DNA of 64,000 nt from Boothiomyces macroporosus (lineage: Eukaryota > Chytridiomycota > Chytridiomycetes > Rhizophydiales > Terramycetaceae): contig JADGKB010000039.1 of the NCBI GenBank assembly GCA_027604185.1, forward strand, positions 47,804 through 111,803, in the 5' to 3' direction. The notes beneath the pieces were generated by a model that saw nothing but the letters and a program-made list of their open reading frames with translations, was not told the DNA's origin and did not search any database. A program made the translations under genes and the position numbers. Shown here in pieces: positions 1,477 to 64,000 of this stretch (positions are counted from its first letter, which is position 1; each line of letters begins with the position of its first letter).

Positions 1477-2072
1477 ATGAACAACGAATATGCTTTTTCA
1501 ATTCGACAGCAACCAAAGAAAGGCAAGGAAGCTGGACTAACAAAGCCCTATATCAAGAGCTTAATGTAAATCAAAACTAAATTAGTACTCCATTGCTGAT
1601 TCTGCAGTTGGAATTTACGCAGGAAATGAGTAGAGAACAAGTATGGTAGATCTAACTATAGCTAATTCGAATGCGATTCCTTTGCAATATCGTACTGCTG
1701 GGCGAGGACGATATGACTGAGCATACACTAGTCGCCAGTGTCTCTGCGATTAAAAGGTATCAGGAAAACATATTTGGAAAGACGATAGTGGAGGGAATTG
1801 TTCTTAAAGACCCAGAGGACGGCAAGCTCAGAATCTTTTTTATCTTTAATGACCTGTATATAAAGACGCCCGGATTTTACAAATTCCGCTGTCAACTGAT
1901 AGACCTGACTACTCCAGATGTACAGTCCCATGAAATCATTACAGAATCCTTTCAAATTTATCAGCTGAAATCCTTCATAAAAGAAAGCACTTCGACTATG
2001 CTAACAAGAGCATTTGAACTGCAGGGAGTGGAGATGAAGACTAAGCGAAGACAAGCGTCCACCTGGTACTAA
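1477..2072 (+). CDS. Velvet-domain protein A, small single-domain form
   Basis: Velvet factors are fungal DNA-binding or partner proteins that control development and secondary metabolism. The gene has three exons, 1477-1565, 1586-1640 and 1662-2072, separated by introns of 20 and 21 nt, giving 184 aa. Seen: the N-terminal velvet signature FSIRQQPKKGKEAGLTKPY, a middle strand LLILQLEF, and the C-terminal core VVLKDPEDGK-like block followed by IFFIFNDLYIKTPGFYKFRC, which corresponds to the family's 'F.F.DL.vr..G.yrlrf' signature. The velvet domain fills the protein; there is no PEST region or long tail as in VeA. Three paralogues in this window (2327, 4237 and 56097) share the same exon layout. 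The start is the first ATG before the RQQP motif. Which velvet subclass it belongs to is not clear. Confidence 0.85.
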
Positions 2073-2326
2073 ATAAATGTGAAATTATTTAATGTTATAT
2101 AACAATGGCTTGATTGGAACACGGAGCGGGTGAAAACTCCGAGGAACGAAAAAAATTTTCTCGTTGGGAGGCTTCTGCTGAAAATGCAATTTTTGATTCG
2201 GTATTTTTCCACTCAGGACCAAGAGTGAAATAAAGAAGGACTGCAGGGAAAATTTGAAAAAAATACTCATACAACACAAACCACCAACAAGCAATCTATT
2301 CCGCAGGTAAAGGGTTCCGTAGTCAT

Positions 2327-2897
2327 TCAGCATAGCTTTTTATTCAGAGTAATTCCTTGCTTTTCAAAAGATCGCATTAGCATCGTTAGTGATCTGTCTC
2401 TCACAAAAGCCTTGATTCCAAAGATTTCAAATTGCTGGGTTTCTAATTCCACAAGTTTTACAGTTGGCGAGTTAAAGTCAAGTAGCTGGCATTTGAACCG
2501 ATAGCACCCTGGAGTCTTGATGTACAAATTATTGAAAATAAAAAATATCCTCCATTTTCCATCTTCAGGATCTTTGAGGACTACGCCTTCCTGAATGGTG
2601 TCTCCAAATACGTTTTCCTGGTATCTTTTTAAAGCAGCAACACTTCCAACAAGAACATGCTCGGCATTGGAATCTTTGCCATATAGAATTACGTTACATA
2701 GGAACCGCATCTGTTCCAGCTAGATTAGCGCAAGATACCTGAGATTTACGCATATCTTGCTCATGTTCGAGCTGTAAGATTAACATTGGATGTCTACAGT
2801 TAACGTGAGAATACATGTGCGACCTTACGTAAGGTTTGGTCAAGCCTGCCTCCTTTCCTTTTATTGGATGTTGTCGAATCTTGAACGAGTAACTCAT
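2327..2897 (-). CDS. Velvet-domain protein B
   Basis: Convergent with velvet A, 254 bp between their stops. Exons on the minus strand are 2815-2897, 2739-2793 and 2327-2719, with introns of 21 nt (2794-2814) and 19 nt (2720-2738), giving 176 aa. Seen: FKIRQHPIKGKEAGLTKPYV at the N terminus, MLILQLEHEQDM in the middle, and IFFIFNNLYIKTPGCYRFKC in the core, all colinear with velvet A. The 19-nt intron begins GTATC and ends CTAATCTAG. Reading through the first intron stays in frame without a stop (21 nt), but the paralogues show it should be removed. Function by family: fungal velvet regulator, probably acting as a dimer. No extra domains. Confidence 0.85.
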
Positions 2898-4236: not shown

Positions 4237-4816
4237 TTAAATTTTGTTTCTTCTGGTTTTGAATTCGATTCCTTGAAGTTCAAAGGATCGCGTCAACATT
4301 GTTGATGTGCTTTCTTTGATATACTCTTTCAGCTTGAATATTTGGAAAGGAGCGGTATCCAATTCATGAAAAGTTACATCGGTAGAATTCAAGTTGATGA
4401 GTTGGCAACGAAAGCGATACTTGCCCGGTGTCTTGATGTATAAATCATTGAATATAAAGAATATTCGCAATTTGCCATCTTCGGGGTCTTTGAGAACTAC
4501 GCCTTGGACGATAGTAGAGCCAAATATGTTTTCCTGGTATCTTTTGACTGCAGACACACTTCCCACAAGCGTATGTTCCATTTGGTTGTCTTCACCAATA
4601 AGAACGATATTACATAGAAAGTTCATTGCTTGAAGCTTTTATAAGAAAGAGACTTACCTTGGATTTGGATAGTTCTTGCTGAAAATCCAATTGTAGGATT
4701 GGCATAGGACATCTAAGGTTAAGCTACACTTACATCTGACTCTTTATATAGGGTTTTGTCAACCCAGCTTCTTTTCCTTTCTTTGGTTGCTGTCTGATAG
4801 TAAATTTAGAAATCAT
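4237..4816 (-). CDS. Velvet-domain protein C
   Basis: Third velvet paralogue, same orientation as velvet B. Exons are 4734-4816, 4658-4712 and 4237-4635; introns are 21 nt (4713-4733) and 22 nt (4636-4657); 178 aa. Seen: FTIRQQPKKGKEAGLTKPYI, then MPILQLDFQQELSKS, then IFFIFNDLYIKTPGKYRFRC. It is closest to velvet A by eye (shared VVLKDPEDGKLR and TSTMLTR motifs) and less like velvet D. The fixed 55-nt second exon is seen in all four genes. Role inferred from family only: fungal transcriptional regulator of development or metabolism. The start ATG at 4816 gives a short leader before the velvet signature. Confidence 0.85.
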
Positions 4817-5713: not shown

Positions 5714-7357
5714 TCATAGCGGGATATTACCATGCTTCTTTTTTGGTTTGCTAATCTTTTTTCTTGCTAGCATTTTCAAATCGCTAATAATTCTATTACG
5801 AGTTTGTGATGGGACAATGATGTCGTCCAAATACCCTTTGATAGCCGCAGGAAGCGGGTTTGAAAACTTGTTTGCGTAATCATTCTCAATCTTGGCTACT
5901 ATTAAAAGCTATTACTTTTATCTTTGACATTTCTAAAAATAATTTCCACAGCTCCTTTAGCTCCCATTACTGCGATCTCACCGGTTGGCCAAGCGTAATT
6001 TGCATCTGCTTTCAAGTGTTTAGAACTATTTTTTAGATAATTATTACCTCATAACATCATACGCTCCTCCATAGGCCTTTCTGGTAATAACAGTAATTTT
6101 TGGGACAGTTGCTTCAGCATATGCGTAAAGCAGTTTTGCACCATTCCTGATAATACCTCCATGTTCTTGCTGCACTCCAGGCAAAAATCCGGGTACATCT
6201 ACCAGGGTTACCAATGGAATATTAAAAGCATCACAAAATCTAACGAATCTCGCTGCTTTTATGGAAGCATTAATATCGAGCGCTCCAGAGAGTTCAAGCG
6301 GCTGATTTGCTATGATTCCTACAGTTGCACCATCAAATCTTGCAAAGCCTGTAATGATATTGGATGCAAAATCAGGCGATAACTCGTAAAAAGTGCTCTT
6401 GTCGACAATCTGTATCAAATTAAGAGTACCTCATGAATAATATACTTCATATCATATGCCTTTGAGGAATCAGTTGGAATAAAATAATCTAATGAGGAGC
6501 ATATTCGATGACTATGTTATTAGAGTGTAATTACGGTGAGTCTTCCGTTGGCTTAACTGGTGCAGGGTCATTATTCGATAGGGGCAAGTAGTTGAAGAAA
6601 TCTCTAATATTTTCCAAGGCTTCTAGCTCATTGTTAAATGCCAAATGGGCTACTCCAGATTTTGTAGTATGTATGTCAGACCCTCCCAATTCTTCATGTG
6701 TAATCAATTCATTTGTAACTCCTTTGATAACCTCTGGTCCTGTTACATACATGTATGATGTGTTTTTTACCATAAATGTAAAATCCATCAATGCCGGTGA
6801 ATAAACCTAGTCTTAACAATAATTACTGCTCCACCAGCACATGGACCCATAATTAATGATATTTGTGGAACAACACCCGATGCCTCGACATTTTTGAGGA
6901 ATATATCCGCAACTCCAGCCAAGGAATCCACTCCTTCTTGAATCCTAGCACCTCCAGAGTCGTTTATCCCAATTACTGGTGCACCAACCTGCATCGCTTG
7001 CTCGATAACTTTGCATAATTTGAATGCATGGGCTTTCGATACACTACCTCCAAAAACAGTTGCGTCTTGAGCATAAACAAACACAAGACGATCATTGATC
7101 TTCCCATACCCAGTAACGATAGAATCGCCATAAATCTTGTTTTCTTCCATTCCAAAATCTGTGCATGTGTGCTGAACAAACGAATTATACTCGACGAATG
7201 AACTTTGATCCAACAGCAAGCTGATTCTTTCTCTCGCCGTGAGCTTCCCTTTCTGGTGTTGCTGTAGCTGTTTCAAATGTCCGCCTCCATTTAGTGTTTG
7301 TAGTTTTAAATTATTCAGTTTTTCCAGTGTGAAGTAACACCGTCGAAAGATTCTCAT
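5714..7357 (-). CDS. PCCB: Propionyl-CoA carboxylase beta chain (carboxyltransferase), mitochondrial
   Basis: The beta subunit transfers CO2 from carboxybiotin to propionyl-CoA, making methylmalonyl-CoA in the mitochondrial matrix. Six exons: 6827-7357, 6535-6806, 6430-6511, 6048-6409, 5916-6025, 5714-5895; introns 20, 23, 20, 22 and 20 nt. Seen in order: a basic N-terminal leader (MRIFRRCYF), [30 protein letters not shown], the oxyanion-forming [32 protein letters not shown] (rebuilt across intron 1), a second set [20 protein letters not shown] and [14 protein letters not shown] (rebuilt across intron 4), and the C-terminal KHGNIPL. These favour PCCB over methylcrotonyl- or acetyl-CoA carboxylase. 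The last intron could be read as 17 or 20 nt; 20 is chosen by analogy. The biotin-bearing alpha subunit is not in the window. Confidence 0.95.
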
Positions 7358-7387: not shown

Positions 7388-9708
7388 TTATTTTTGGAGC
7401 ACATCATCCTCGGTTTGGAATTCATCTACTTGGCTAAGATCAATGGGAGTTGGTAATTCTCTTCCGTGTTTCTGCACCCGCTTGTTGTCGATCGAAACTT
7501 CTCTCGCCCTCTTTTTACTTTCTCGCTTGATTTTAGCATTTTCGAGATGAATAGATAATTGCACTTTGTGCAGCTTTCTGCTGTTTAGCGAATCTTCTGG
7601 AATTGTGTTGAGAGTGAGATACTTCCAAACAAATGGAGCCTTTTCATGTAATGGCCCTAAAAGTTCGGGAAACTTGGCAGTCATTAATGCACTGGTTTTG
7701 ATATCTGGACTTTCAAGCTTTGAAAAGATTTCCTTGGCATCCGCATAATCATCGAATACAATTAATGTTTGTACATACTGTAACGCACTTGGATTCCTTA
7801 ATTTGGTATTTTTAATATCCTCCCACAATTTCATTGCCAGTTGCTTATCATTCAAATCTGCTGCCAGCTCCAACATGATACCAACCATGTTAGTGGTAAC
7901 TTTCATGCCATTCTGTACAGCTTCATTCCAAACCTTGGTTGATTCGGCAACATCCTGTACTTTTTTATATGCGACCAATAGTTGCTCATAGGTTTCTGCA
8001 TTTGGTTGCAATTGATTCATTACAAGTTTGTCATAGTATTGCTCTACATGTTCTAGATTGTCTCCTTTTCGCATATTGAACATCTTCATCATATGGTTGA
8101 TAATTGAAACATTCTGAATATCACCAAACTTTTCCATCTCCTCAAACCAAAGCTTACTTTGTTCCAAGTTATTGGTCAAAGAGAGCATGTCCGTGAATAA
8201 TTGGATTGTGGTTTCAGCTAGTGGTAGCCTGCAAGCACGTAAATCATTCAAATATTGAAATGCTTTCTTCCAGTTTGGGTTTGGTTCTTGAGAGATATGC
8301 TGATCCAAGTAGGCTTTGATTAATCTATTGAAGATTTTAACTGTCGGTTTGATTTTAGATTGAACCATTTCTTTAATGACCTCCTGCGTTCTCATTACGG
8401 ATCCTCTTTGGCAGTGTGCGTCCACTAGGTAATAGTAGTGTTCGGCCGTTGTGTTGAATGCTCTTCTGTTGATTTGCTTGATTAGAGATACCGCACGCGT
8501 ATAGTTCCCTGTTGCAGCAAACATCTTTAGCATATTCATAAATGTCGTTTCGTAGCAGTATTGTAATGATTGTAATATTCGCATTTGATATAAATTAGCC
8601 TTTGCCATAAGATACGGAAGTTTGCTTCTATCAGCGTCAACTAACTCTGCAATCATGTTTACTATACTGTTCATAACATATGGCTCAATTATCACACCAG
8701 CTCTTGTAGTTTCATCATATATCTTATCCACTTGTTCCAAATTTTTGGCTTTGCAGCATTCCAGTAGCTTATTTCTAGCAACTATCTGATCCAGGTTGTA
8801 TTTTTCTTTGATTTGATCTTCCAGCGCCGATAGTCTATCAGGCAGATATTTCGAATAAATTGCATGAAGGTTTCTAAATATCCCCAAACTCCACTCACTG
8901 CCTTCATGCTTGAGCACTTTTAACGTATAATCTAACGTTGATTGATTGAAATTATCTAAAATACCTTGCAGGATCTGGGTAGCAGTAGATACACCTACAG
9001 TTAGCATTGGTTACCTAACAGAACACTGTTGTTTTTCATGTTTTTCAAAATAATTTGGACACTCTGGAGATCTTGTTTTTTCAAATATGCTTGTATAAAG
9101 TAATAACTGGTAATTGCTAAATCATTCGGTAGTTGGTAATACCTTTGCGCATCATCAACATTGCCATTTTCAAGCAAACCCAAAATAAAATACACATTAT
9201 GGCCACGCTCAACCTTAATCTGGTCTTTTTGCATCCGTTCAATAAACTGGTCCACCTGCTCTCTGTTTGTAAAAGTATGCTGTGCAGCCCTTGCCAAGCT
9301 AATGTATGCAAATGGAGTAGGAGCATTGTATTCCCGCAGTTTATTGAAAACTAGTTCTGTTCGAAATAGCCTTGTCTCTGGGTGCAATATTTTGGAACAA
9401 GACATTTTGTTCATCAAGTTGAGTAATCGGCCTGCATCAAACTTGTGCCCTTTGATAGTTGTAAAAAGATGAAATAATTTGAAATGATCATCAATGGTTT
9501 TGTTGAACAAGTCAATATCCGCTTTATGATCCCTTTCCTCCGTGATTTTAGGTAATGCAGTGATTTTATCCGTTTCTGGAAAGTCGTCGCACAACCTGAA
9601 ATTCTGAGCCATCTGCTCCTTTAGCTTCTTTTTTTGTACTTTAAGCTGCCACTTTGGCTGATCGGTTTTTGTAGAAACCCTCCTTACAATAGACCGACAC
9701 TTTAACAT
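7388..9708 (-). CDS. Pentatricopeptide-repeat (PPR) protein, probably mitochondrial
   Basis: Two exons, 9015-9708 and 7388-8994, joined by a 20-nt intron (8995-9014) that restores a continuous 766-aa protein. The ATG at 9708 gives a basic leader, MLKCRSIVRRVSTKTDQP, typical of mitochondrial import; the frame extends upstream but has no earlier ATG. The body is helical with repeated PPR-like units such as TTAEHYYYLVDAHCQRGSVM, then VKIFNRLIKAYL and NAETYEQLLVAYKKVQDVAE. A basic C-terminal stretch (KIKRESKKRAREVS) could contact RNA. PPR proteins bind organellar RNA to control its stability or translation; the target cannot be told from sequence. It lies 30 bp downstream of PCCB's start and 32 bp from the hydrolase gene on the same strand. 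Confidence 0.75.
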
Positions 9709-9740: not shown

Positions 9741-10749
9741 TTACAACCACTGTTTATTGCCCCTTTGGAAAATTTCCAGCATTTCCTTGATGGTTTCGTT
9801 TCGCCCTTCCATAATAATTGCGTGACCTTTACCTGGTACAATAACGGATTTGCAATCCAAGTATTTGGCGAGATGGCGACTGCTGTCAGGATCAATTAAT
9901 TTATCCTCTTCGGCACCGATTACCACAATATCTGGGATGAGCTTTCCTATTTCTTGCAATCTGCTATCTTCAACATTATGAGTCCTCAATGCGGCGCTTT
10001 GGCCAAAGATCGTGTAGATATTCGGTCTATGGTTTCCAGCGATTCCTTCAAGTTGCTTAGTCAACGCTTCCTTGTTTGTAATTCCTTCTTCATTTACATC
10101 ATTCAAAAACTCGTTATCGGAAAAGCAAATCTCGATAAAGGCTACGTTAGAATATTGTACTTTCAATAATGTTGTGTCCAGGGCGATATTTGAGTAACTG
10201 TTTCTCTGTATGCCAATGGTACTTTGGCGGTTTCCTGAATTTGGCGGCAGTGACAAGCAAAGTCATTGATTTAAATCGAGAAGGTAAAAGATACGCCAAT
10301 TCCAAAGATATAAACCCTCCCTGCATTAGCAAAAGCTACCATTGAAATTCCCACAAGATGCACGCTTCTTTCTTTGATCCAGCCAGCGTGTTCCAGGACA
10401 CATTTGATGTCATTCGCCATGCCTTTGGTAGTATATCTAGTCAATTTATTACCTACCTGGCAAAAGAGCCACAAGTACTTTTGCCTATTCCACGGTTGTC
10501 AACTACCAAGAAGCAATATTTACCTGGTAGGTTATCATTAAAATAATTAATGATTGACGCCCATCCTGCCATCGAAGACAACAACCCCATTACAAGGAGG
10601 ATTTTGTCCTTGGATTCATTGCCATGTATCTCATAATTCAGTGAATAGTCCTGAATTGGGCAGTATCCTACTTTGGTTGGAATAGAGCTAAAGTAACCCG
10701 AACCTACAGCAGCTGCATTATCAATATTCTTTACAGATCCAGTTAGCAT
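9741..10749 (-). CDS. Alpha/beta hydrolase fold protein
   Basis: Four exons: 10457-10749, 10340-10436, 10161-10320 and 9741-10141; introns of 20, 19 and 19 nt; 316 aa. Splicing is supported by the fold's motifs: KILLVMGLLSSMAGW (HG-like oxyanion strand), VVDNRGIGKS, then the nucleophile elbow GISMGG, which is created exactly by removing the 19-nt intron at 10321-10339. The acid is likely the Asp in VIGAEEDKLIDP and the base the His in VPGKGHAIIMEG. Substrate is unknown; the architecture matches small esterase, lipase or epoxide-hydrolase-like cytosolic enzymes. No signal peptide or transmembrane segment. The 3' end almost touches the start of the PPR gene. Confident as an active hydrolase, not as to its reaction. 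Confidence 0.88.
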
Positions 10750-14403: not shown

Positions 14404-16110
14404 TCAATTTATAACTGGCAGGTTTGGATCTTGAGCGAAAAAGACTGTATAAAGTCGCTTGGCAACGCTTTCACCTGTTCTATACTCTTTTCCTGTAGAA
14501 GCAGTTTCGTAAGGTATACCCGCTAAATCCTTGAAGCTTTTCACTTGTTCCAGGAATTTACCCAGAGTAGGATACTTTTTGCTGATCCCAATAGCCATCC
14601 TCTCTGTTATACCGGGTATCTTTTCAATCATTTTTACCCACGTATCTTCTACATCTTTACCAGATTTTATAGAATCTCCGAAAGCAAGCTGGTTATATTC
14701 CGCTGATTTGACACTACAATTAGGACTGGATTACTATTGGTCTGGGAATATTGCAATCTGCTGGAGAAATGAAATTAAAAATCCGTGCAAGTCTACTTTT
14801 GTGCATGTATGGATTTTACATTTCCCTTTTCCATAAATTTGCAATAGTATCAGCTCTCTTTCAATAGTTTTTTTATCTGGACCGTCCAATATATCATTAG
14901 TCTTTCTTTTTTTCCTTCTTTCGTTTGTAAGCTGCTCTCGTATTTCATCATTGCGAATTGCTATTTCTGCACTGCTATATGATCTGTAATATTCTGGTAG
15001 ACCAACAACGAAAAAGATTATTGTATTACCTTGAAATTCCGATGTGCAATCTGTAAAATATTTGACAAGAGTGTTATCCTTTTTTAAAATCTGAGCAATT
15101 TCAGTTGCTGATAGCAAGATCATTGTATACGGAAGCCTTTCTAACCGAATATTGCAAGGATTCCATGATCCGTTTTCGAAATCATACTCTCGATCAACTT
15201 TGTGGGTCAAAGAGAGCGAGTTTCTGATTTTTGGAGCTACTTTTCTAATCTCCACACCAACTTCTTCCAGCGAGTTTTTGAGGTATGGATCTTTTTCATC
15301 CCACTCTGTACATAAATGAACAATTAGTTCCCTGGTACACTCGATCTTTTGCCTTAACCTATTCGCGGTCTGTAATGCCTTTTTCCCAATCTGTTCCATT
15401 TCTAAAGCTTCCTTTTCTCGTTGTTTTTCAGATTTCTTTGTTTCCTTTTCTTCATCCCGAAGTTGTTTTTGCTTTAATTTAGTTTCCAATCGAATATTTC
15501 TTTCCTGTTCTCGTTTCAACTGTCTCTCTAATCTCTCCATTTTCTTTATGGTTTCCCTTTCCGTTCTTTTTTGTAATTTTTCAATGGATTTGGAAATATC
15601 TGTTTTACTTATGAGATCTTGTTCTTTTTGTAATAGCTCTTGGTGTGATTTCAATACCGGCTGTGAATTGTTTATAGATGACTCAAAATCAGAATCATCA
15701 GAATCAGATAGTCTGCATATATCGATATTTGAATTCAATCTTGTCCTTGAATCGTAATGCTTTGATATTGTCCTTGAATCGTTCTCCTTCAAACTAGATT
15801 CCAGTGAATCCAATTCGAAATCATCTGTAAAATCGTTTGGCCCTTCCCAACAGTCAAAATCAAAATTTGGTGATTGCTGGAATGTGTTTCTACTCTGGAA
15901 AGGAGATTTTGACTGGTAAGATTGAGCTCCACTAAACGGAGAGCTAGATTGATTGGGTAAAGTCAGAGAACAGTCCTCTTTCGATTTATCATTAACGAAC
16001 CCATCATCATCCGAATCCAAAATAATCACATCATTACTATTCTTTGTCGGCAAACTTTCAAAATCAGAGTCGATATCCTAAATTAGTCGAAAACTTGCAA
16101 TTATTTCCAT
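14404..16110 (-). CDS. EME1: Crossover junction endonuclease subunit EME1/MMS4
   Basis: EME1 partners MUS81 to cut branched DNA during recombination. Exons 16099-16110 (only MEII), 14735-16077 and 14404-14713; introns 21 nt each (16078-16098 and 14714-14734); 554 aa. Seen: an acidic N-terminal region with SIM-like VIILDSDDD, a long charged coiled coil (residues roughly 150-240, KKMERLERQLKREQERNIRL), the degenerate ERCC4-type nuclease region with NTIIFFVVGLPEYYRSY and KIHTCTKVDLHGFL, and a C-terminal helix-hairpin-helix (IEKIPGITERMAIGISKKYP). The nuclease motif lacks the canonical ERKxxxD, as expected of the non-catalytic partner. The first intron is GC-AG; a GT donor inside it would break the frame. 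The start is 29 bp from the divergent APC13 start. Confidence 0.85.
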
Positions 16111-38048: not shown

Positions 38049-38100
38049 TTAGCGATGGCTGCAACCGCAAGTAGATTATGCTAACTCAGAACATATAAGC

Positions 38101-49080: not shown

Positions 49081-49228
49081 TAAAAACAATATACTGGGTC
49101 ATCGAGCTTTTTGTAGCTCATTCTGTTTGAAATTTGGGAAAAGTTAGTGGAACGCAAAAACCTTGAGCAGCCCCAAGCGGAAAGAGATGAACAGAGAGAC
49201 GCTGAATAGAAGTGTTAAAAAGTCTAGT

Positions 49229-52601: not shown

Positions 52602-52661
52602 AATTTCGGACAAGCTTCAAAAATAACTCTATTGATGTATTTATTGTACACTATTTCCTAC

Positions 52662-55267
52662 CTACTTTTTGGCTAGCAACTGATCCCTCGCCTTGTAAAA
52701 CGCTTGAATGTCACTATGGACAGAGTCATTAGAAAGCTTGTCCAATCTAGAAGGCGGTCTGTACTTTTTGTCAAGAGTGGTGGATGAGCTGAGGCTGCTT
52801 AAAGGCCTTGCTGGCTCATAATTACCAAGCCTTGACGAACTCCGAGAGTTTTGAATTCGTTGGTAGTTTGAAAGGGCATTTGTATCCACGTATTCATCCA
52901 CCAAAGTCTTTGAAGAAACATTTGCAGACATTAGGTTGAAATCAGGCTTCATTTTGCAAGTTGCACTTGGATAATTCATCTTTGGCTCAGGCGTAGAATC
53001 CTTTGAAGAATCAAAAGTCGGCGAGTCCATTACAGGATTTACCCACGCCTCTGATTTAAACATGGACTTTGTCGTTTGTATTTCTTCTGCACAGCTATCT
53101 GAAAAGTCGCCTTTATCTTGATTTACAATCGGATTGTTTCTATATCTGGCTATTGTATCATTATCCATTTGATACACCTCCACATACCACGCTTCGAAAT
53201 CCCGAGTCATGCGAATTCTTGCTTGCTCCAGTAAATGCTGTAAATGCTCAATTTCCGCCTTCAGCTCTTTTAAGCTTTGGTAAGAAGACTTGTATTCCAA
53301 TATAAGATTTGATAATTTCAATCGCTGTGCTTCTAGGTCGGGTGTATTTTCTAAATCCGCAAGTTTCTCTTTGATAATTTCTTGATTAGAAACGAATTAC
53401 TCATTTCATTCCTAAGATTTCCGGCTTTAGCACCCAACTGTTTTGCTTCAGTGTACTTTGCTTTTAACACTTGTTTCTGCCTGTCTATCCAGTCAGCGGA
53501 AGGATATGATTGCTTGAACAATTCAAAAGCTTTCGCCTTTTCTGTTGACAGTTGTGGTAAAGACTTTTTCAAATCCCCGCCCTCTGGAGTGATTGTGCTA
53601 ATTACTGTTCGTTTCATTGTAGGCACTATTTCTGATTTTGTGCCCTGGATTAATAATCAATATACCGTTTCTGAAGAAGGTTCAAGTTTTTTCTTTAATT
53701 GCGCAATCATACCAACGAGAATATTGATTTCATTGTCTCTGTGAGCAGCCAACTGCTTGAGTTTGTTGAATTGCTCCAATTGTTTGATTGTGAGACCTTG
53801 TTCATCAAACTCAATGTTATCAGATAGCGTGGTGGATTTTGAACAAGTAATTACACCTCCACCGTTTATAATTCTTGTTTTCATCAACCTGAAGGCATAC
53901 TGGATCTTTTTGTAATCAGAGAATACTAGTTCTGCATTTTCGTCTGTATTTTGGAGATATTCTTCAACTGCAGTTTGAATTCTGATATCAGTAAAAGAGA
54001 ACCGTTCTTTTTCATAGTCTGGCAGTTCATCATTATTTTCCGTTGTTTCACCTCTTGCAATAGCCAGCTCTGCTCTTAATCTTGCAATTTCTGCTTTTAA
54101 CCGAATAATCGTAAGTTGTGGATCCAGTTCCTCATTCAGAGTGGCATTATTTGCGATTAATGCTACTCTTTGAGCAAATCGGCAGGTTGAGATTGATTCC
54201 TAAATTAAAAATGCTGTTACTTCAATTAGCATGTCTTCAACAGCGATTGTCGCAATCATCGTAGTTTTACAGTTTCCACCTAGAGAATCTCGTAAAACCG
54301 AGGTCATCATCGAGTTGCGATATGGAATGTGGGTCCTTTTTCCTTTACTTGATTCGTGAAGAGCTATAATTACTTGCTCCAAGTAATGCAAAGATAAGTT
54401 GATATGTTTAGCTTCTTTTAACAGTGTGCCATCAATTCCTGTACGAGCTACTCTTTCAGAACCAGCCAAATCAACCAAATGTAACTTTGATCTCCGTATA
54501 ACATCTTGCCCCGCCTTTCTACAAGTAAGTGTAATGATAAAGACACAATGCGATCTCGAAGAAGAAGGATTGGACGGCGTTTCAGCAATCATTCGATTAG
54601 TATCCCCAACAAACAACAGATTAAGCGCATCTTCTTCATTGTTTGCTGGCACAACTGATAAATTCCGAAGATGGATCATTTCATTTTCATCCTCCATCAG
54701 CGTAACTTTTGGCAAATCTTCCAGCTTCTTTGCGTCTCTACTAGAATCTAGCAAGTCGTATCCCATCTCATTATAAATTTCTAAATAGGAAACATGAACT
54801 GTGTACATGGAATTTGGATCCTACATTAATAAATAGTCACGTTTTGTATGTGTTTGAAAATGTACTGCAGTGTTCTAGGGATTAACCCTCTATCAGCGTA
54901 TCTCTCTGCACCGCCAGTTATTGTAAATGTTTTTCCAGACCCAGTTTGACCATACGCAAACAGTGTGCCATTATATCCCTGCAAGACACTTGTCAAGATA
55001 AACTTACCTATCAATAATTGGTTTGGCTACAACATCAAAAACCTCTTCTTGACCGCTTTCAGTATCAAACACTTTGTTGAATTGAAATTCATAATTTTCT
55101 TTTTGATGGTTGATTAATCCTTGTTGAAGATCTTTAGGCACATGAAATCCAACCTTTTCCATATTTTCACTCTGTTCAACCCAGTATCGTCCCGCCGAAG
55201 CCTTGAATTTTGCATTCTTTTTTATCGGTCTGATTCTTCCATAAACCTGAATCGTAGAAGAGACCAT
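52662..55267 (-). CDS. KIF6: Kinesin-9 family motor, KIF6 type
   Basis: Six exons: 55008-55267, 54841-54988, 54221-54820, 53666-54199, 53401-53644 and 52662-53380; introns 19, 20, 21, 21 and 20 nt; 834 aa. Kinesin-9 motors work on the axoneme central pair. Seen: STIQVYGRIRPIKK, FAYGQTGSGKTFTITGGAER (P-loop), NPSSSRSHCVFIITL (switch I), KLHLVDLAGSERVARTGIDG (switch II), then ESISTCRFAQRVALIANNAT, a stalk with HRDNEINILVGMIAQLKKKL, FELFKQSYPSADWIDRQKQV, and the C-terminal HSDIQAFYKARDQLLAKK. The N-terminal cap, neck and tail motifs all match KIF6 rather than KIF9. Each intron phase is consistent. Strong evidence that the organism builds, or recently built, a motile flagellum. Confidence 0.95.
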
Positions 55268-56096: not shown

Positions 56097-56669
56097 ATGA
56101 ATTATGTCTTTCAAATAAGGCAAGAGCCAGTGAAAGGAAGAGAATCCGGTTTAACGAAACCATACCTCAAAAGTAACCTGTAGCGACTATTTAATCTAGG
56201 TATCCCATACTCGTTTTGGAATTGGCGTTTGAAAAAGACATGACAAAGGAGCAAGTATTCTGAATTTAATATTTAGCTAGAGTCTCAAAGATTTGTTTGT
56301 AATATAGTACTGTTAGGGGAAGAGGATTCAGTTGAGCATACACTTTATGGAAGTAAAGCCGCTATGAGAAAACTTCGAGAGAATATTATTGGAACTACCA
56401 CAACGGAAGCTCTGATTTTTACTGATCCCGAAGACGGCAAACCTAAAACATTCTTTGTATTCTCTAATTTGTACATTAAAGTGCCAGGAAAGTACAGGTT
56501 CCTTTGCCAGCTGTTGGATTTTTCAAACGAGAATTTACAGCTTTCAGAGCTAAAAACATCTGAATTTGAAATCCAGAAACTAAAGGATTTCGAACTCGAC
56601 TACCAGCCTTCAATCCTTACAAGATCTTTTGAAATTCAAGACTTTGCGAACAGAAGAAGATACAAATAG
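56097..56669 (+). CDS. Velvet-domain protein D
   Basis: Exons 56097-56179, 56200-56254 and 56277-56669; introns 20 and 22 nt; 176 aa. Same architecture as the three velvet genes at the start of the window, including the 55-nt second exon, but 50 kb away. Seen: FQIRQEPVKGRESGLTKPYL, then YPILVLELAFEKDMTKEQ, then the core LIFTDPEDGKPKTFFVFSNL and YIKVPGKYRFLCQLLDFS. It is the most diverged of the four (FVF instead of FIF, KVPG for KTPG) but keeps all velvet landmarks. Role by family: fungal regulator of development or metabolism, probably homo- or heterodimeric with the paralogues. Confidence 0.85.
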
Positions 56670-56927: not shown

Positions 56928-57795
56928 TTACTCATCTTTTATTGGAGGTCTTGACGTGGTTGGCATTGGTAAAGTAGTATCAAACATATCTGGAACTGTA
57001 TCAATTTGCAACACTGGCAATTTAACTTGGCCAGTTCCTTCAAACTTGTATATTTTACTATTACTACCTAGCTCACTGCTTTCTAATGTCAAATTATTAT
57101 CAACCAATTCCCAATACTTTTCGATCTCTGGCTGTTTCTCTGCTCAAATCCAAATCTTCGTATCCATCAAGTTTAAAATCATTCAGAGATACAAACGAAA
57201 GAGCTCTTTCTTCAATAGTTTCACAGAAACCACCAGGTTTAGGTTCAGACTCTGAGGTCTGCAACCAACCAACAGGAGGAGAGCCTTTATCAGTTACGGC
57301 ATACCTATAGTCAAAAGGAAATACCTGGCGGAGACAAGAGAAAATTCCTTTCTGGTTCCGGTATGTTGAGGTAATTCATTCTAATCGATGGTTCAGGATT
57401 CAGCCAATTCAGATCTGTATGCTGAAATTAGCTCCAAATACCATTCCAAAGTAAACTCTAATTTCCTTTCCTGTTTTAATAATCACATACCTACAAGTTA
57501 AATGATCAATTTCCTAGTATTAATGACAAATTACCTGAGTAAATATCAATTTGCCTTCATATTTTGTTTTGTGCAATTCATGTTTGATTTTCTGGGATAT
57601 GAATGTATCGTCAAATACAGCTAATAATCTCCCGAATGATTTCAATACAATCAGCTTTTCTAAATGCCCGTATGGCTCTAGCAATTTCTTGACTAGCTCT
57701 CCATGATTCTCAAAGCACTGCGGAGATACATTTGTAATGATCAGCGTGTTCGTAGCGACTGCTTCCGCTTTTGTATCTTGTAGTTTATCCTCCAT
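56928..57795 (-). CDS. RCN1: Calcipressin (RCAN/Rcn1), regulator of calcineurin
   Basis: Binds and regulates calcineurin. Exons 57555-57795, 57442-57470, 57325-57421, 57105-57284 and 56928-57082; 233 aa if all proposed introns are removed. Seen: NTLIITNVSPQCFENHGELV, LIVLKSFGRLLAVFDD, HELHKTKYEGKEIRVYFGMH, then ERNFLLSPPGSPPVGWLQTS and the C-terminal PMPTTSRPPI, the calcipressin signatures. Introns at 57422-57441 (20 nt) and 57083-57104 (22 nt) are ordinary. The intron at 57285-57324 is 40 nt and splits into two perfect 20-nt units; neither alone restores the frame. The first intervening sequence is ambiguous: either all 84 nt (57471-57554) are removed, or only a 21-nt intron (57514-57534), which leaves an open 21-residue insert. 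Start is 39 bp from the divergent RPC5 start. Confidence 0.88.
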
Positions 57796-57834: not shown

Positions 57835-59604
57835 ATGGTTGGAGTATATGTCAAACAGGAACCTATCGATGAAAACCAAGACATATCTATGGATGTTGAA
57901 GATGATCCAATTGTGGAAACTTATAAAATCAATTTCACTGATACTCAGAATTTATTGTTTTTGCAGTTCCCTACTAGATCAAAGCCATTTACAAATTATC
58001 CCAAAGCAGCGAGAATCAAACCAACTTCAAATAAATTGCAGGTTGATTTGCCCCTGGATAATCCCACTCACTATGATGAATTCCGGAACCAAGAGTACCA
58101 AACAGAGCTAAAAACAATTCAACTGGATTCCTTTCAAATACCAAAGAATGGGAAATACATGGTGGGCATATTTGAAGGTAATTGGAATTTGACTTAGATG
58201 GTAGTTTATTATTAATCAGATACCCTGCATCTTACAGAAATCAAAGACGTCTATCAGCTCAGACCTACACTATCGCATATAGACAGGCACCAAGAAGCTG
58301 AAAAGCAATTAAAGCTGAAATCAAACTTTGAAGACATGAAGGATATCAATCCCAACTATGAAGAGGAGGCGAAAACGATTAAAATGGGAAACTTGGAAAA
58401 CATTCAACAATTGCAACTACAGCAGCAAACCAGCAGGGAGCCATGGGTAGAGTTGCGGATAAATGATCCTGGTAATTATATAGTTAATCTAGATTCGGAT
58501 GATTCTAAAATTCAGATGGATTACTTGAAGCAAGAGAGTGAGATGGAAGTGGAGGAAATCACTAATTATCTGGGAGAAATTACATCCAAAGATCAGAATG
58601 CTCCAGTATTCAAGTCTACAATGGCATTTAACGAAACTGTAGGGTTTACATTGCACGAGCGATTATTAGCACTACTGTTAAATTGCCATGCTATTGGATT
58701 TTCAAATGTAGAGGAATTGTTTGATAACGATCCACTGGATTTAATAGCTATGCTTGAACAAGTTGCGGTGGTAATTCGAGGTACTTGGCCTTAATCTAGG
58801 AATCTGGATAATCAAGAGCAGATTTTTATATAAAGATAGACCGCTGAATGCAAGAAATTATTTATTAGGACAATTCTTACAGAACGATCATGTAAAAAGA
58901 TCCGAGTTTGCTCAAGTTTGCAAGCTACCAAATGAAATGTCTTTAAACATGCTTCGGGAAATTGCTGTGCTGACTGATGACAGAAAGTGGTATTTAAAAG
59001 TTCCAGAAGAACAAGACTTTTCTGTAATGTACTCTGAAGTTGCAGAAAGAAATGCCACGAATATCCAAGCAGATGCTGATTATGCTCTAGGACAAATAAG
59101 TGGCACTTTGGTCAAGGCAGCTCAAAAAGTAACATCAAAAACCAGAGTTATTACATCTCCAGTAAAATACAATATTGATGGGTCTAATTTGCAAGAAAGG
59201 GTGGATTCATTGATTAAGCAAATCCTAGCCGGTGGAGCCACTAGCATAAGCAAAATTATGGATGTCTTTGCGCAGCAAATTGACTGTAAATCAAACTTAA
59301 CCTAGTGCCTAAATCCAAGCTTGCAAATGCAACACCAGAAATGATTAAACAGCAAATCCAATCCTTGTGTATTACAATCAAAGATGATATAGTAGTTCTA
59401 AAAAGAAGTGGTAATGAACTACAAGATCAATTCCGCTACATTGCGATAGCCATGTTTAGGGAAAAAGATGTCCTAAAGAAACAAGAGTTGCACCAGCGAT
59501 GGAAGGAAGAATATGGAATGCACCCACAACCTGCAATGTATTCCAAGATCATGCAAGAGCTGGCTGTTGCTAAAAATGGTGGAAACTGGCAATTGAAAAG
59601 CTGA
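57835..59604 (+). CDS. RPC37: RNA polymerase III subunit RPC5 (Rpc37/POLR3E)
   Basis: RPC5 forms the RPC4-RPC5 heterodimer of Pol III, needed for termination and reinitiation. Exons 57835-58177, a 3-nt microexon 58198-58200 (or none), 58220-58780, 58800-59285 and 59306-59604; 563 aa. Seen: KQEPIDENQDISMDVEDDPI, then KPFTNYPKAARIKPTSNKLQ (polymerase-dimerisation domain), HLTEIKDVYQLRPTLSHIDR, and a winged-helix C-terminal half with RGIWIIKSRFLYKDRPLNAR and ATPEMIKQQIQSLCITIKDD. The region 58178-58219 must be removed to keep the frame and the HLTEI motif; it reads as a 20-nt intron, ATG, and a 19-nt intron, or as one 42-nt intron. Both leave the frame intact. Confidence 0.88.
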
Positions 59605-60448: not shown

Positions 60449-61854
60449 ATGGTAAATAGTCGAGTAACACCAGGGACAAAATCAATCGGGATTACCAGGC
60501 GGACCGCCAGGAGATAAAAAAGATGAAAAGGTTACTATTACTTAACCATCAGCAAGAAAAGAAAAAGTGGGAACCACCAGTTCCAACTCGTGTAGGAAAG
60601 AAAAAGAAGAAGGGGCCAGATTCAACTACCAAGCTCCCTGCTGTATTCCCAACCACAAGATGTAAATTGAAGCTCCTCAAGAATGAAAGAATCAAGGACT
60701 ATTTGCTCTTGGAGGAGGAATTTGTTCAAAACCAGGAAAGATTGAAACCACAGGAAGAAAAGAACCAAGAAGAGCGTGGAAAGATTGATGATTTAAGAGG
60801 ATCTCCTATGAATGTTGGAAACTTGGAAGAAATTATTGATGATGACCATGCGATTATCTCTACAAACCAAGGACCAGAATATTATGTTAGCATCATGTCC
60901 TTTGTCGACAAAGACTTGTTGGAGCCTGGAAGTTCAGTGTTGCTACACCACAAGACACTTGCGATTGTCGGGGTTTTGCAGGATGATGTTGATCCAATGG
61001 TATCTGTAATGAAATTGGAAAAAGCACCTACAGAATCTTATGCAGATATCGGTGGTTTAGAGGCCCAAGTTCAAGAAATCAAGGAAGCTGTTGAATTGCC
61101 ACTTACACACCCTGAGTTGTACGAAGAAATGGGTATCAAAGCACCAAAAGGTGTAATTTTGTATGGTGCTCCTGGTACAGGTATTTCAGTTTTGATTTCT
61201 AGGAAAAACACTTTTGGCTAAAGCTGTCGCTAATCAAACATCGGCCACCTTTTTGCGTATCGTCGGTTCCGAATTAATCCAAAAATATTTAGGTGATGGT
61301 CCAAAGTTGGTTCGAGAGCTGTTCAGAGTTGCTGAAGAGAATGCACCATCCATTGTTTTTATCGATGAAATCGATGCTGTTGGTTCAAAGCGTTATGACT
61401 CTACCTCTGGTGGTGAAAGAGAAATTCAAAGAACCATGTTGGAATTACTCAATCAGCTTGACGGTTTCGATTCCAGAGGCGATGTCAAAGTTATCATGGC
61501 TACCAATCGCATTGAATCATTGGATCCTGCTCTGATTCGTCCTGGTAGAATTGACAGAAAAATTGAATTCCCACTTCCAGATGTAAAAACAAAGAGAAGA
61601 ATCTTTAATATTCATACCAGCAGAATGACTCTTGGTGATGATGTCGATTTAGAAGAATTTGTTATGGCTAAAGATGACTTGTCTGGTGCTGATATCAAGG
61701 TAATAATTGCTAATGCAAGGCTGTATGTACTGAAGCTGGTTTGCTTGCTCTGAGAGAAAGAAGGATGAAAGTTTTAGCTGATGACTTTAGAAAGGCTAAA
61801 GAAAAGGTATTATACCGCAAAAACGAAGGAACTCCAGAAGGTTTATATCTATAA
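60449..61854 (+). CDS. RPT2: 26S proteasome regulatory ATPase Rpt2 (PSMC1)
   Basis: Rpt2 is one of six AAA+ ATPases of the 19S base; its N terminus is myristoylated and its C terminus opens the 20S gate. Five exons: 60449-60451 (just the ATG), 60474-60530, 60553-61180, 61203-61699 and 61720-61854; introns 22, 22, 22 and 20 nt; 439 aa. Seen after splicing: [20 protein letters not shown] (N-myristoylation glycine), [40 protein letters not shown] with the Walker A split by intron 3, [14 protein letters not shown] (Walker B), [20 protein letters not shown], and the gate-opening C terminus LYL. Every intron removes cleanly. Length is one less than human Rpt2. Intron 1 begins immediately after the start codon. 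Confidence 0.98.
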
Positions 61855-61978
61855 TTTTGCAATAAAAGCTGCTTTCTTTAAAGAACCTGGTACAATCACG
61901 GTGGTGGTCTTTGAATAGAAAGCGAAGATTTTGGAGATTCAAGTATGCTTTCATCCTCTGCCACATAATTCCCTTTGA

Positions 61979-62677
61979 TTAATTATATTTACCAAAACTG
62001 TCGAGCCTCGTGGTTATTGCATGATGAGAAGGATGAACCAAATCAACATCGTGGCTAAGCTGCCCTTCAGCAACAAGCTCAGGCTCATAGTACCCTCGCC
62101 AGCTGTTGTCATAGAGCAAATCACTACTAGGTCTAACCACAGACGCGTTTGGAGTGGTATCCAGTGAACTAGATTCATACTGAACCGCACTTCTTTTGAC
62201 AAACGGATGAAAGCTGTCTTGGTGTAAGGTGCCAAATGTAGTACCACCCAGTCTATTCTGAAACTTGTCTGAGGATCGCAGGTACATCTTTCTGAATATG
62301 AATATTCCAAGTGCTGCGATTGCTATAGCTGAAATTCCCAGTATGATTCCCAGTTTGAGATCGAATGGCAGTGAAGAGTTGGATTGGTCGCCCAGTGTGT
62401 TATTTGATCCAGACGTTGTTGCATAAGGTGAAGCCATACCGTTAACCTGTGTTAATGAATTGATTTGAAAAGTAGTTACAATTGGATTTGATATTGGAGT
62501 TGTGTTTCCAGTATGCGCTGTGTTCACATTGTTGGTTGTAACACCTGTTACTGCAGATGAAGGTTGATTTATATCTGTTGGTTGAATCACAAGCCTTGTT
62601 GTCACTTGAACACTAGTCTGGATATTTATTTGCTGGGTAGTTTGAATTGGACTTGGATTGCTTACGGTTGTTGTCAT
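61979..62677 (-). CDS. Mucin-like single-pass membrane protein, paralogue
   Basis: 232 aa from the ATG at 62677; no earlier ATG in frame. The N-terminal 115 residues are Thr/Ser/Gln/Asn rich (TTTVSNPSPIQTTQQINI, then NTAHTGNTTPISNPIV) with no clear signal peptide, then a transmembrane helix (LGIILGISAIAIAALGIFIF), a basic anchor (RKMYLRSSDKFQNRL) and a cytoplasmic tail with histidine- and serine-rich segments ending DSFGKYN. The juxtamembrane SSDKF block and helix match the next gene (ASDKFKARLDD), so the two are tandem paralogues. Single exon. Likely O-glycosylated ectodomain and type III topology, as with the gene at 41242. Confidence 0.72.
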   Translation of the reverse strand: MTTTVSNPSPIQTTQQINIQTSVQVTTRLVIQPTDINQPSSAVTGVTTNNVNTAHTGNTTPISNPIVTTFQINSLTQVNGMASPYATTSGSNNTLGDQSNSSLPFDLKLGIILGISAIAIAALGIFIFRKMYLRSSDKFQNRLGGTTFGTLHQDSFHPFVKRSAVQYESSSLDTTPNASVVRPSSDLLYDNSWRGYYEPELVAEGQLSHDVDLVHPSHHAITTRLDSFGKYN

Positions 62678-62758
62678 CCTTTTTGTTTTTATCAAAGTTT
62701 GGACGTGTCTTTTTGTTTATAGACCACCAAAATATCGGAAATCAGTTAACATGGAGAT

Positions 62759-64000
62759 TTATTTCTTGGAATCTATTATGGGTGGCATATCTATAGTGTT
62801 CTCCCCTTTGCCTTCATTTTCTCTAACAGCCGATTGAGATACCCCTTCAACCCTATGCTCATTTTCCTGTTTCTGTTTTTTAATAATTACTGGTATTTCC
62901 GCCTGTTCAGACAGATCAAGAATTGGTATTTCTGCATTTTCAGACTGATCAAGGATTGGTATTTCTGCATTTTCTGGTTGCTCATACGGTTTAGGTCTGC
63001 TATATGAAGTGCCAACTGGGCTATTGAAATTCTTGTTTGGATCATTTCCTTTCCAGTTATACGGAGGATTGTGCACTGAAAAACTGTTTCCTGGCACAAT
63101 TGGCGGATATGTAAACGAAGTTCTTGGGGTAATATCCGCTGGTGCTACTGGGATATAATTGCCCACCCCTGGTGAGCTAGTATTAGAAGCGTTTGGACCG
63201 TAACTGTATGTGTCCGACCCTGGAGCTGAATTTGAAGCTGCGTTTGTAGAAAAGTACGGAGACAAACTTCCCGAAGTTGGGGCATATGGTCCTGGTCTGG
63301 TATAACCTTGATATTGATATGCTGTAACTGCAGGGGCGTTACTTATTTGATCACTGCCGTTAGTTGGTGGCGAAATTGATTCGTTTGACGTGTAATCAAA
63401 GGACGGTCTTTGTGATTCATTGGCATATACACTTTGATACTGTCTGTTGTTGTAATCCATCATAGTTTGAGGTGGAGCTGAATTAGATGAATAATCTATC
63501 GAAGGCCTAGGTGTGCTGTCAGCAGAAAAGTATGATCCATTTTCTCTTGAAGTAGAAGGAAATGCATACTGATTAGGAGGATTTCTTTTTGGGAATGGAG
63601 CCGAGTCGTATTCTCTCGAATCGATTGGATCATCTAATCTAGCTTTGAATTTGTCCGAAGCCTATATTAGCAATTTTTACTCTAAGGCTAATTGCTCGAA
63701 ATGCAAAGATGCCTAGAGCTGCGAGAAATATTCCGCATGCTCCGATAATTAACCCAAGTCTTATAGTATCTCCTGTTGTTGAACCATCGGCTTGCGCGAT
63801 AGTTGTGTTGAATGGTAAATCGGAGCTTTGTGTAAATGTGCTGTAATCGGTAGATGGGATGTTCTGAACGGAATAACTGTCAGTATTTATAGATGTCACA
63901 AGGGATGGGATTACATTTATTGGAGTAGTTGGGATTATACTGGTTTGAACTGGCTGGTTAGCTGTTGTCCAAACGGTTGGTACAATATAAGTGACTGTAG
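62759..64000 (-). CDS. Mucin-like membrane protein, 5' end outside window
   Basis: Exons 63681-64000 (open to the window edge) and 62759-63661 with a 19-nt intron (63662-63680). The ectodomain is Thr/Ser/Pro rich; the transmembrane helix (LGLIIGACGIFLAALGIFAF) is followed by RAISLRASDKFKARLDD, rebuilt across the intron and matching the paralogue at 61979. The cytoplasmic part is long, about 300 residues, Tyr/Ser/Pro rich with SxDY and PSFDY-like motifs and an 11-residue repeat near the end (ENAEIPILDQS and ENAEIPILDLS). Probably a surface sensor-like or structural mucin. The start codon is beyond base 64000, so the ectodomain length is unknown. Confidence 0.72.
62885..62974 (-). repeat. 33-bp tandem units in the cytoplasmic tail
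   Basis: Two full 33-bp units and one partial encode ENAEIPILDQS, ENAEIPILDLS and EQAEIPVI. The first two are nearly identical at DNA level. Possible short linear-motif array for protein binding. Confidence 0.8.

What the first reader, a model, noticed from the sequence alone, without database searches (positions are those of the whole stretch)
1477..63680. Genome-wide ultrashort introns of 19-23 nt
About 80 introns could be placed by joining frames across conserved motifs; almost all are 19-23 nt and over half are exactly 20 nt. They have a GTA-rich donor, a CTAAY/TTRAY branch-like motif ending 3-8 bases before the AG, and no room for a polypyrimidine tract. Comparable lengths are known in chlorarachniophyte nucleomorphs and some ciliates; I know of no fungus described with this as the norm. 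A spliceosome working on 20-nt substrates should show matching changes in U2AF, SF1 or U2-associated proteins.
Basis: partly seen in the sequence, partly recalled or inferred. Interest (0 to 1): 0.85.

Follow-up and report, generated by a model that had tools for sequence, protein, structure and literature searches.

The report
Fungus with genome-wide 20-letter introns
A chytrid fungus appears to interrupt its genes with introns that are nearly all 19-23 letters long, among the smallest known, using splicing parts that look largely ordinary, in a space far below what the human machine is reported to need.

Summary
A gene model that knew only GT...AG and allowed any length from 12 to 150 nt put 17 of 74 gaps at exactly 20 nt. 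Over 264 kb, with motifs learned but lengths free, it gave 19:46, 20:111, 21:43, 22:24, 23:5 of 362, and one each at 17 and 18; 50 control runs with other boundaries did not. In six window genes 18 of 19 junctions checked have no alignment gap at or near them. The branch adenosine is at intron position 14-15 in 193 of 224, never 13. U1, U2, U6, U2AF35, SF1, SF3B1 N-terminus and Cwc25 look conventional. U2AF65 RRM1 reads HCH where 118 of 121 aligned rows keep two aromatics; the Isy1 N-terminus is divergent. Such lengths are known in heterotrichs, mikrocytids and nucleomorphs; ten paper searches showed no fungus like this. No RNA evidence was available.

The parts
1566..1585 (+). intron 20 nt, velvet paralog A, intron 1
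   Evidence: homologous position in three paralogs
1641..1661 (+). intron 21 nt, velvet paralog A, intron 2
2794..2814 (-). intron 21 nt, velvet paralog B, intron 1
2720..2738 (-). intron 19 nt, velvet paralog B, intron 2
4713..4733 (-). intron 21 nt, velvet paralog C, intron 1
4636..4657 (-). intron 22 nt, velvet paralog C, intron 2
10503..10523 (-). intron 21 nt
   Evidence: gene model
10437..10456 (-). intron 20 nt
   Evidence: gene model
10321..10339 (-). intron 19 nt
   Evidence: gene model
10142..10160 (-). intron 19 nt
   Evidence: gene model
8995..9014 (-). intron 20 nt, PPR protein
   Evidence: gene model; PPR
6807..6826 (-). intron 20 nt, propionyl-CoA carboxylase beta
   Evidence: no gap at junction vs solved PCCB
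6512..6534 (-). intron 23 nt, PCCB
   Evidence: no gap at junction
6410..6429 (-). intron 20 nt, PCCB
   Evidence: no gap at junction
6026..6047 (-). intron 22 nt, PCCB
   Evidence: no gap at junction
5896..5915 (-). intron 20 nt, PCCB
   Evidence: no gap at junction
12018..12037 (+). intron 20 nt, Med16-like
   Evidence: spliced protein hits Med16_C
12282..12301 (+). intron 20 nt, Med16-like
12477..12496 (+). intron 20 nt, Med16-like
13217..13236 (+). intron 20 nt, Med16-like
13376..13395 (+). intron 20 nt, Med16-like
13515..13533 (+). intron 19 nt, Med16-like
13714..13733 (+). intron 20 nt, Med16-like
14714..14734 (-). intron 21 nt
19592..19613 (-). intron 22 nt, MET6
   Evidence: spliced product matches annotated P0001 and P0002 across the junction
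21257..21276 (+). intron 20 nt, histidine phosphatase
   Evidence: spliced protein hits His_Phos_2
21382..21400 (+). intron 19 nt, histidine phosphatase
21489..21511 (+). intron 23 nt, histidine phosphatase
22025..22045 (+). intron 21 nt, histidine phosphatase
22187..22206 (+). intron 20 nt, histidine phosphatase
22958..22977 (-). intron 20 nt, NF-YB
   Evidence: gapless vs solved HapC
22899..22917 (-). intron 19 nt, NF-YB
   Evidence: gapless vs solved HapC
22752..22770 (-). intron 19 nt, NF-YB
   Evidence: just past the end of the alignment
23735..23754 (+). intron 20 nt
26403..26422 (+). intron 20 nt, pantoate ligase region
   Evidence: weak branch motif
27188..27207 (+). possible intron 20 nt, probably a false call
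   Evidence: no branch motif
29082..29101 (+). intron 20 nt
29924..29944 (+). intron 21 nt, VID27
   Evidence: VID27
30739..30758 (+). intron 20 nt, VID27
31370..31389 (+). intron 20 nt, VID27
32564..32583 (+). intron 20 nt
32644..32662 (+). intron 19 nt
34732..34751 (-). intron 20 nt, low-scoring gene
34930..34949 (+). intron 20 nt, fumarase
   Evidence: gapless but weakly conserved stretch
35024..35044 (+). intron 21 nt, fumarase
   Evidence: gapless vs solved fumarase
36036..36055 (+). intron 20 nt, fumarase
   Evidence: gapless vs solved fumarase
37694..37713 (-). intron 20 nt, aldehyde dehydrogenase
37222..37241 (-). intron 20 nt, aldehyde dehydrogenase
38071..38089 (+). intron 19 nt
38391..38410 (+). 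intron 20 nt
38864..38882 (-). intron 19 nt
39889..39909 (+). intron 21 nt
40411..40430 (+). intron 20 nt
40878..40897 (+). intron 20 nt
43410..43429 (+). intron 20 nt
43485..43505 (+). intron 21 nt
43920..43938 (+). intron 19 nt
44282..44302 (+). intron 21 nt
44381..44400 (+). intron 20 nt
44532..44551 (+). intron 20 nt
44598..44618 (+). intron 21 nt
   Evidence: weak branch motif
44899..44920 (+). possible intron 22 nt
   Evidence: weak branch motif
49075..49094 (-). intron 20 nt, P-type ATPase
48850..48869 (-). intron 20 nt, P-type ATPase
47050..47069 (-). intron 20 nt, P-type ATPase
   Evidence: joins two long ORFs
46103..46122 (-). intron 20 nt, P-type ATPase
54989..55007 (-). intron 19 nt, KIF9-type kinesin
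   Evidence: no gap at junction vs solved kinesin
54821..54840 (-). intron 20 nt, kinesin
   Evidence: no gap at junction
54200..54220 (-). intron 21 nt, kinesin
   Evidence: no gap at junction
53645..53665 (-). intron 21 nt, kinesin
53381..53400 (-). intron 20 nt, kinesin
56180..56199 (+). intron 20 nt
56255..56276 (+). intron 22 nt
57514..57534 (-). intron 21 nt
57422..57441 (-). intron 20 nt
57083..57104 (-). intron 22 nt
58178..58197 (+). possible intron 20 nt, RPC5
   Evidence: only 3 nt from the next, one of the pair may be wrong
58201..58219 (+). possible intron 19 nt, RPC5
   Evidence: see previous
58472..58492 (+). intron 21 nt, RPC5
   Evidence: spliced protein hits RPC5
58781..58799 (+). 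intron 19 nt, RPC5
59286..59305 (+). intron 20 nt, RPC5
60452..60473 (+). intron 22 nt right after the ATG, RPT2
   Evidence: no gap at junction vs solved RPT2
60531..60552 (+). intron 22 nt, RPT2
   Evidence: no gap at junction
61181..61202 (+). intron 22 nt, RPT2
   Evidence: no gap at junction
61700..61719 (+). intron 20 nt, RPT2
   Evidence: no gap at junction
61973..61992 (-). intron 20 nt
63662..63680 (-). intron 19 nt

Best explanation
These are ordinary U2-type (major) spliceosomal introns shrunk to a near-fixed size in the nuclear genome of the chytrid Boothiomyces macroporosus. Shown by sequence: GT-AG ends, donor GTAAT-like with little +5 G, branch YTRAY, TAG-rich acceptor, branch A at position 14 or 15, 5-6 nt after it, sharp drop below 19 nt. 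Shown: U1, U2 and U6 genes with canonical pairing regions, and recognisable U2AF35, U2AF65, SF1 and SF3B1 N-terminus. Inferred: the intron is defined by U1 on the donor plus one compact 3' module in which SF1 and then U2 take the branch site and U2AF35 reads the AG a few nt away; with no pyrimidine tract, U2AF65 acts mainly as a scaffold (UHM to SF1/SF3B1, tryptophan motif to U2AF35) and its RRM1 has lost the aromatic RNA-binding face. Inferred: the floor is set by the roughly 13-nt spacing between donor G and branch A that the active site needs, and deletion bias keeps introns just above it. The confidence given is for real introns removed by the major spliceosome; the scaffold and floor steps I put at about 0.45.
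For: Length peak with free length; boundary controls and decoy lengths; branch motif emerging unmodelled; 18 of 19 junctions in six window genes without a gap at or near them; three velvet paralogs sharing both intron places; two U2AF65 RRM1 introns exact against solved U2AF65; 0 branch A at 13 against 7.2 from shuffled interiors; snRNAs; U2AF35 with both zinc fingers (the first finger read by eye across a 19-nt intron); SF1 and SF3B1; U2AF65 RNP1 on a confidently predicted RRM1 (block pLDDT 92-98 for residues 261-340, whole model 67.6).
Against: No RNA reads, so no splicing event has been seen. The longer list of 87 may hold a sixth to a quarter false calls. Eleven of 224 branch picks lie at positions 9-12 and one predicted intron in SF3B1 is 18 nt, so the floor is sharp but not absolute on this evidence. 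The scaffold role rests on residues alone: the two HCH rows are one gene seen twice (query and P0121), and the only other departure is one unnamed metagenome protein (SAI, P0124). Globomyces and Kappamyces keep the aromatics, and their intron sizes could not be read. A few longer introns (about 45-73 nt) may be real, so 19-23 nt is the norm, not a strict rule.
Confidence: 0.9

Rival explanations
1. Assembly or sequencing indels shift the frame and the reader joined frames at chance motifs.
For: Long ORFs do end in different frames, and a model free to drop any segment always finds some; control boundaries still give 24.8 gaps of 19-23 nt on average.
Against: GT-AG gives 172; junctions without gaps in conserved proteins; shared places in paralogs; same splice in another strain's annotated protein.
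Confidence: 0.01
2. The segments are real but are skipped by the ribosome (bypassing) rather than spliced.
For: Their small, uniform size is like bypassed segments of some yeast mitochondria (recalled).
Against: GT-AG ends, a YTRAY motif at a fixed place matching the U2 branch-pairing sequence, and U1, U2 and U6 genes.
Confidence: 0.01
3. The introns are real, but the U2AF65 RRM1 and Isy1 changes are lineage drift unrelated to intron size.
For: Isy1 also departs in Globomyces and Kappamyces while their U2AF65 RNP1 is intact; few independent lineages; the other factors read are conventional.
Against: Both RNP1 aromatics are kept in 118 of 121 aligned rows (the query and the 120 best of 1,371 hits), and the Isy1 N-terminus is also reported non-conserved in Stentor (PMC9505925, passages).
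Confidence: 0.5
4. A different 3' factor, as SPF45 does on truncated pyrimidine tracts of short human introns (PMC8363638, passages), replaces U2AF here.
For: There is no room for a pyrimidine tract and U2AF65 RRM1 has lost its usual RNA face.
Against: U2AF35 zinc fingers, the ULM tryptophan, the UHM and RRM2 are all conserved, odd if U2AF were bypassed. SPF45 itself was not searched.
Confidence: 0.15

Closest known systems
Stentor coeruleus (heterotrich ciliate) 15-16 nt introns (PMC9505925, passages and section 5)
   Same: Major spliceosome, all snRNAs, branch A at a fixed place, 5-nt tail after it, commonest intron begins GUAAU and ends UAG, Isy1 N-terminus non-conserved.
   Different: Branch A at position 10-11 there, 14-15 here; no strong branch consensus there, strong YTRAY here; Cwc25 glycine plug lost there, kept here.
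Mikrocytos mackini 16-17 nt introns (PMC10245619, passages and section 7)
   Same: Narrow length range at the functional minimum.
   Different: Reduced parasite with 17-19 spliceosome proteins found and 224 introns; here U1, U2, U6, U2AF and SF1 were all found and 27 of 33 window gene models hold such introns.
Chlorarachniophyte nucleomorph 18-21 nt introns (PMC6461891, passages)
   Same: Almost the same length range.
   Different: 373-kb relict endosymbiont nucleus with shrunken U1 and U5; here a 15.2-Mb nuclear genome and a U1 matched over the whole Rfam model, though just under its cut-off.
Cryptococcus neoformans short introns (PMC11913375, passages)
   Same: A fungus rich in short introns.
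   Different: Average 56 nt there, said to have the highest share under 60 nt among the fungi that paper compared; about 20 nt here.
Yarrowia lipolytica introns without pyrimidine tract (PMC2483917, passages)
   Same: Branch site very close to AG, no pyrimidine tract.
   Different: Rather long introns there, so the donor-branch distance is not squeezed.

Membership tests
U2-type spliceosomal introns | GT-AG boundaries beyond chance | tested here: met
   50 control runs
U2-type spliceosomal introns | Branch motif complementary to U2 GUAGUA | tested here: met
   YTRAY; two U2 genes with GTGTAGTATCTG
U2-type spliceosomal introns | U1 and U6 with canonical 5' splice-site pairing | tested here: met
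   ATACTTACCTG, ACAGAGA (read as reverse complement); U1 scored 68.8 bits, just under Rfam's 69.5
U2-type spliceosomal introns | Removal restores a conserved protein exactly | tested here: met
   18 of 19 junctions
U2-type spliceosomal introns | Splicing seen in RNA | not testable with these tools
   no reads available
Ultrashort (pygmy) introns | Narrow length range under about 25 nt as the genome norm | tested here: met
   229 of 362 gaps at 19-23 nt, the rest spread thinly to 300 nt; gaps over 23 nt have weaker motifs on average
U12-type introns | RTATCC donor | tested here: not met
   none among the 25 commonest donor hexamers printed (GT donors only were allowed); U12 snRNA not searched
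Polypyrimidine-tract-dependent 3' splice sites | Pyrimidine run between branch and AG | tested here: not met
   2-3 nt of mixed bases there in 191 of 224
Stentor-type remodelled branching factors | Cwc25 N-terminal glycine plug lost | tested here: not met
   MGGGDLNLKKSWHP in L050
Stentor-type remodelled branching factors | Isy1 N-terminus non-conserved | tested here: met
   the model of the first exon is uncertain

The most novel reading that the evidence does not exclude
A branch of Rhizophydiales has pushed its whole intron set to the physical minimum of a conventional spliceosome and retuned the machine to match: U2AF65 RRM1 gave up pyrimidine binding, the Isy1 N-terminus that enters the active site was rebuilt as in Stentor, and +5 G was relaxed, converging with ciliates on the same GUAAU...A-5 nt-AG layout. 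The 13-nt donor-to-branch spacing would then be a readable physical limit of this active site.
Probability: 0.4. Interest if true: 0.86.

Novelty: new variant of a known kind. Interest (0 to 1): 0.74.

Why it matters
Human splicing extract needs about 50 nt between donor and branch site for efficient assembly (PMC6692369, passages). A fungus that seems to manage with 13-14 nt, using recognisable versions of the same parts, gives a natural system to ask what really limits intron size and what U2AF65 RRM1 and the Isy1 N-terminus are for. It also warns that gene finders with larger minimum introns will misread this clade: two related annotated MET6 proteins (P0007, P0008) lack 11 and 10 residues right after this intron's place.

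Tried and rejected
Plain motif counts by length showed only a small bump at 19-21 and were dropped for the gene model. A model without motifs joins neighbouring genes across intergenic gaps, giving a thin flat tail of long 'introns' (131 of 362 gaps lie outside 17-23 nt); these were not counted as introns. A stop-on-retention test is biased, since stopless 21-nt introns look coding (42 of 43 at 21 nt had a stop, 36.9 with shuffled phase). A +5 G contrast between ultrashort and longer introns was inconclusive: 0.12 of 128 against 0.31 of 29 without motif scoring, but 0.09 of 179 against 0.12 of 17 with it. RED_N found nothing, uninformative because no control genome rang. The aldehyde dehydrogenase structure search returned nothing at its strict cut-off. 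Of 17 zf-CCCH places, 8 were cut out as loci and 7 of these modelled; none read as U2AF35; a direct query found it. The ten paper searches listed no report of such introns in a fungus; only listings were seen except for the papers cited with passages, the library holds open-licence papers only, and no preprints. SMU1, SPF45, U4, U5, U12 and Prp8 were not searched. Organism names of solved structures (human, Aspergillus and so on) are not printed by the tool and would be recalled, so the report names molecules.


Full report
Where it is. The window is G000:C39:47804-111803 of a 15.2-Mb, 216-contig genome. Its MET6 protein is 99% and 97% identical to two NCBI proteins with truncated names, 74% to Gorgonomyces and 72% to Batrachochytrium. 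Its U2AF65 matches HK103_002678 of Boothiomyces macroporosus, whose contig is 351,873 bases, exactly the length of contig C2 here; the two proteins differ by one stretch that the public model skips. So the genome is taken as that of B. macroporosus (Chytridiomycota, Rhizophydiales, Terramycetaceae). P0001 shares its contig length (214,835) with a Boothiomyces sp. JEL0838 protein and is taken as the sister strain.

Is it real. I trained a codon-aware gene model on long ORFs and let it delete any GT...AG segment of 12-150 nt at equal cost. In the window 17 of 74 deletions were exactly 20 nt, while other lengths occurred once or twice each. On window plus C1:1-200000 (264 kb, lengths 12-100) the counts were 19:32, 20:86, 21:26, 22:22 of 370, with none at 18, and a branch-like motif appeared that the model knew nothing of. 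With donor, branch and acceptor weights learned but lengths still equal from 12 to 300 nt, they were 19:46, 20:111, 21:43, 22:24, 23:5 of 362. Replacing GT or AG by other dinucleotides in 50 control runs gave 19-23 nt counts of mean 24.8 (sd 7.2, maximum 42) against 172 for GT-AG, and 20-nt counts of mean 5.3 (maximum 12) against 85. A learned length preference raises the window count to 87, against 3-24 for ten shifted decoys.

Homology. Junctions were read against independent proteins in six window genes: MET6 (1), RPT2 (4), NF-YB (3), fumarase (3), kinesin (3 of its 5), PCCB (5). Eighteen of these 19 lie in aligned stretches with no gap at or near the junction (RPT2, kinesin and PCCB have gaps elsewhere); the third NF-YB junction lies just beyond the alignment, and the first fumarase junction is in a weakly conserved stretch. 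Three tandem velvet paralogs have two introns each at the same places and phases, with lengths 20/21, 21/19 and 21/22 and unlike interiors (velvet by Pfam). Outside the window, two introns inside U2AF65 RRM1 are exact against solved U2AF65, and a pumilio gene with ten introns of 19-21 nt splices into a protein aligned along the PUF domain, with some gaps.

Anatomy. In the 229 introns found without length preference, +4 A (141), +5 T (112) and +6 T (121) lead; +5 G occurs in 26, although U1 carries the ordinary ACTTACCT. The branch A is at intron position 14 in 99, 15 in 94, 16 in 16 and 17 in 4 of 224 scored; 11 lie at 9-12, none at 13, and 5 introns with weak branch scores were dropped. Shuffled interiors predict about 7 of 229 at each position, 13 included. 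Five or six nt follow the A in 191 of 224. The model without any motif gives the same picture: 60 at 14, 56 at 15, 1 at 13, 20 scattered at 8-12. The lariat would be a 14-15 nt loop with a 5-6 nt tail, against a 10-11 nt loop and 5-nt tail in Stentor (PMC9505925, section 5).

Machine. U1, two U2 and one U6 gene with canonical pairing stretches. U2AF35 keeps both zinc fingers. SF1 keeps its helix hairpin, KH region and an RW-type ligand motif; the SF3B1 N-terminus keeps RWD-type motifs (the motif reading is from memory). U2AF65 keeps RRM2, the tryptophan that binds U2AF35 and the UHM, but in RRM1 the RNP1 triplet is HCH. In the 121 aligned rows (the query and the 120 best of 1,371 hits) there are 67 FAF, 49 YAF, 1 FAY, 1 YVF, 2 HCH (query and P0121, the same gene) and 1 SAI (P0124). 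N196 of the human protein, which contacts RNA (PMC4786784, passages), aligns with glutamate; that the two aromatics stack on uridines is recalled, and the passages seen do not mention them. The predicted RRM1 fold is confident though the whole model is not, so the domain persists without its usual RNA face. Isy1 lacks the M-A/S-R-N start seen in 62 of the 120 best of 375 hits (many others look annotated from an inner Met); Globomyces and Kappamyces also differ. Cwc25 keeps its glycine plug.

Reading. The most economical account is a conventional major spliceosome working at a hard spacing limit: donor and branch 13-14 nt apart, AG right behind. Lengths pile up just above the floor, as expected if deletion pressure pushes against a functional threshold, the idea set out for mikrocytids in PMC10245619 (section 7). 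Loss of the pyrimidine tract would explain a relaxed RRM1; this is inference. Against it stand the single clear lineage, relatives of unknown intron size with intact RNP1, and the lack of RNA.

Novelty. Ultrashort introns are known in other lineages. Among fungi, the passages seen call Cryptococcus (average 56 nt) the richest in introns under 60 nt of the species compared (PMC11913375), and a 644-genome fungal intron study mentions no such case in the passages I saw (PMC8476143). Public protein models of the genus already remove several of these introns, so the data are implicit in public annotation, though I found no paper in the ten searches that remarks on them.

Noticed in passing
window 181-1164 (+) and 51717-52616 (-): Two ORFs with viral-type domains: a herpesvirus UL52-type primase match and a YqaJ/alkaline exonuclease match, neither with ultrashort introns inside; possibly old large-DNA-virus genes in the fungus.
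   Followed up: partly
L029, L030 and L031, about 1470-1480 and 1675-1720: U1 and both U2 genes share ATTAAAATGAAA within 15 bases after the matched RNA end and TATAAATA about 20-30 bases before its start, like an snRNA 3' box and promoter.
   Followed up: no
L032 433-2551: U2AF65 lies just behind a ribosomal L24 gene and both my model and the NCBI protein P0121 fuse them; P0121 also drops MFLLPCHLLKG beside a 19-nt intron, so the public model is partly wrong.
   Followed up: partly
P0007 and P0008 (MET6 of relatives): Annotated proteins lack 11 and 10 residues right after the Boothiomyces intron site, suggesting an ultrashort intron that the gene finder replaced by a longer one.
   Followed up: partly
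window 1477-4816: Three neighbouring velvet-factor paralogs in a chytrid, one on + and two on -.
   Followed up: partly
G000 C20, C36, C49/C100: Equal family hits at paired places (C20:74251 and 119318; C36:45043 and 87227; C49:3542 and C100:5137) suggest recent duplications or unmerged haplotypes.
   Followed up: no
window 49229-50194 and 50566-51612 (-): Two neighbouring similar ORFs without introns, one with a PD40 beta-propeller match below its cut-off.
   Followed up: no
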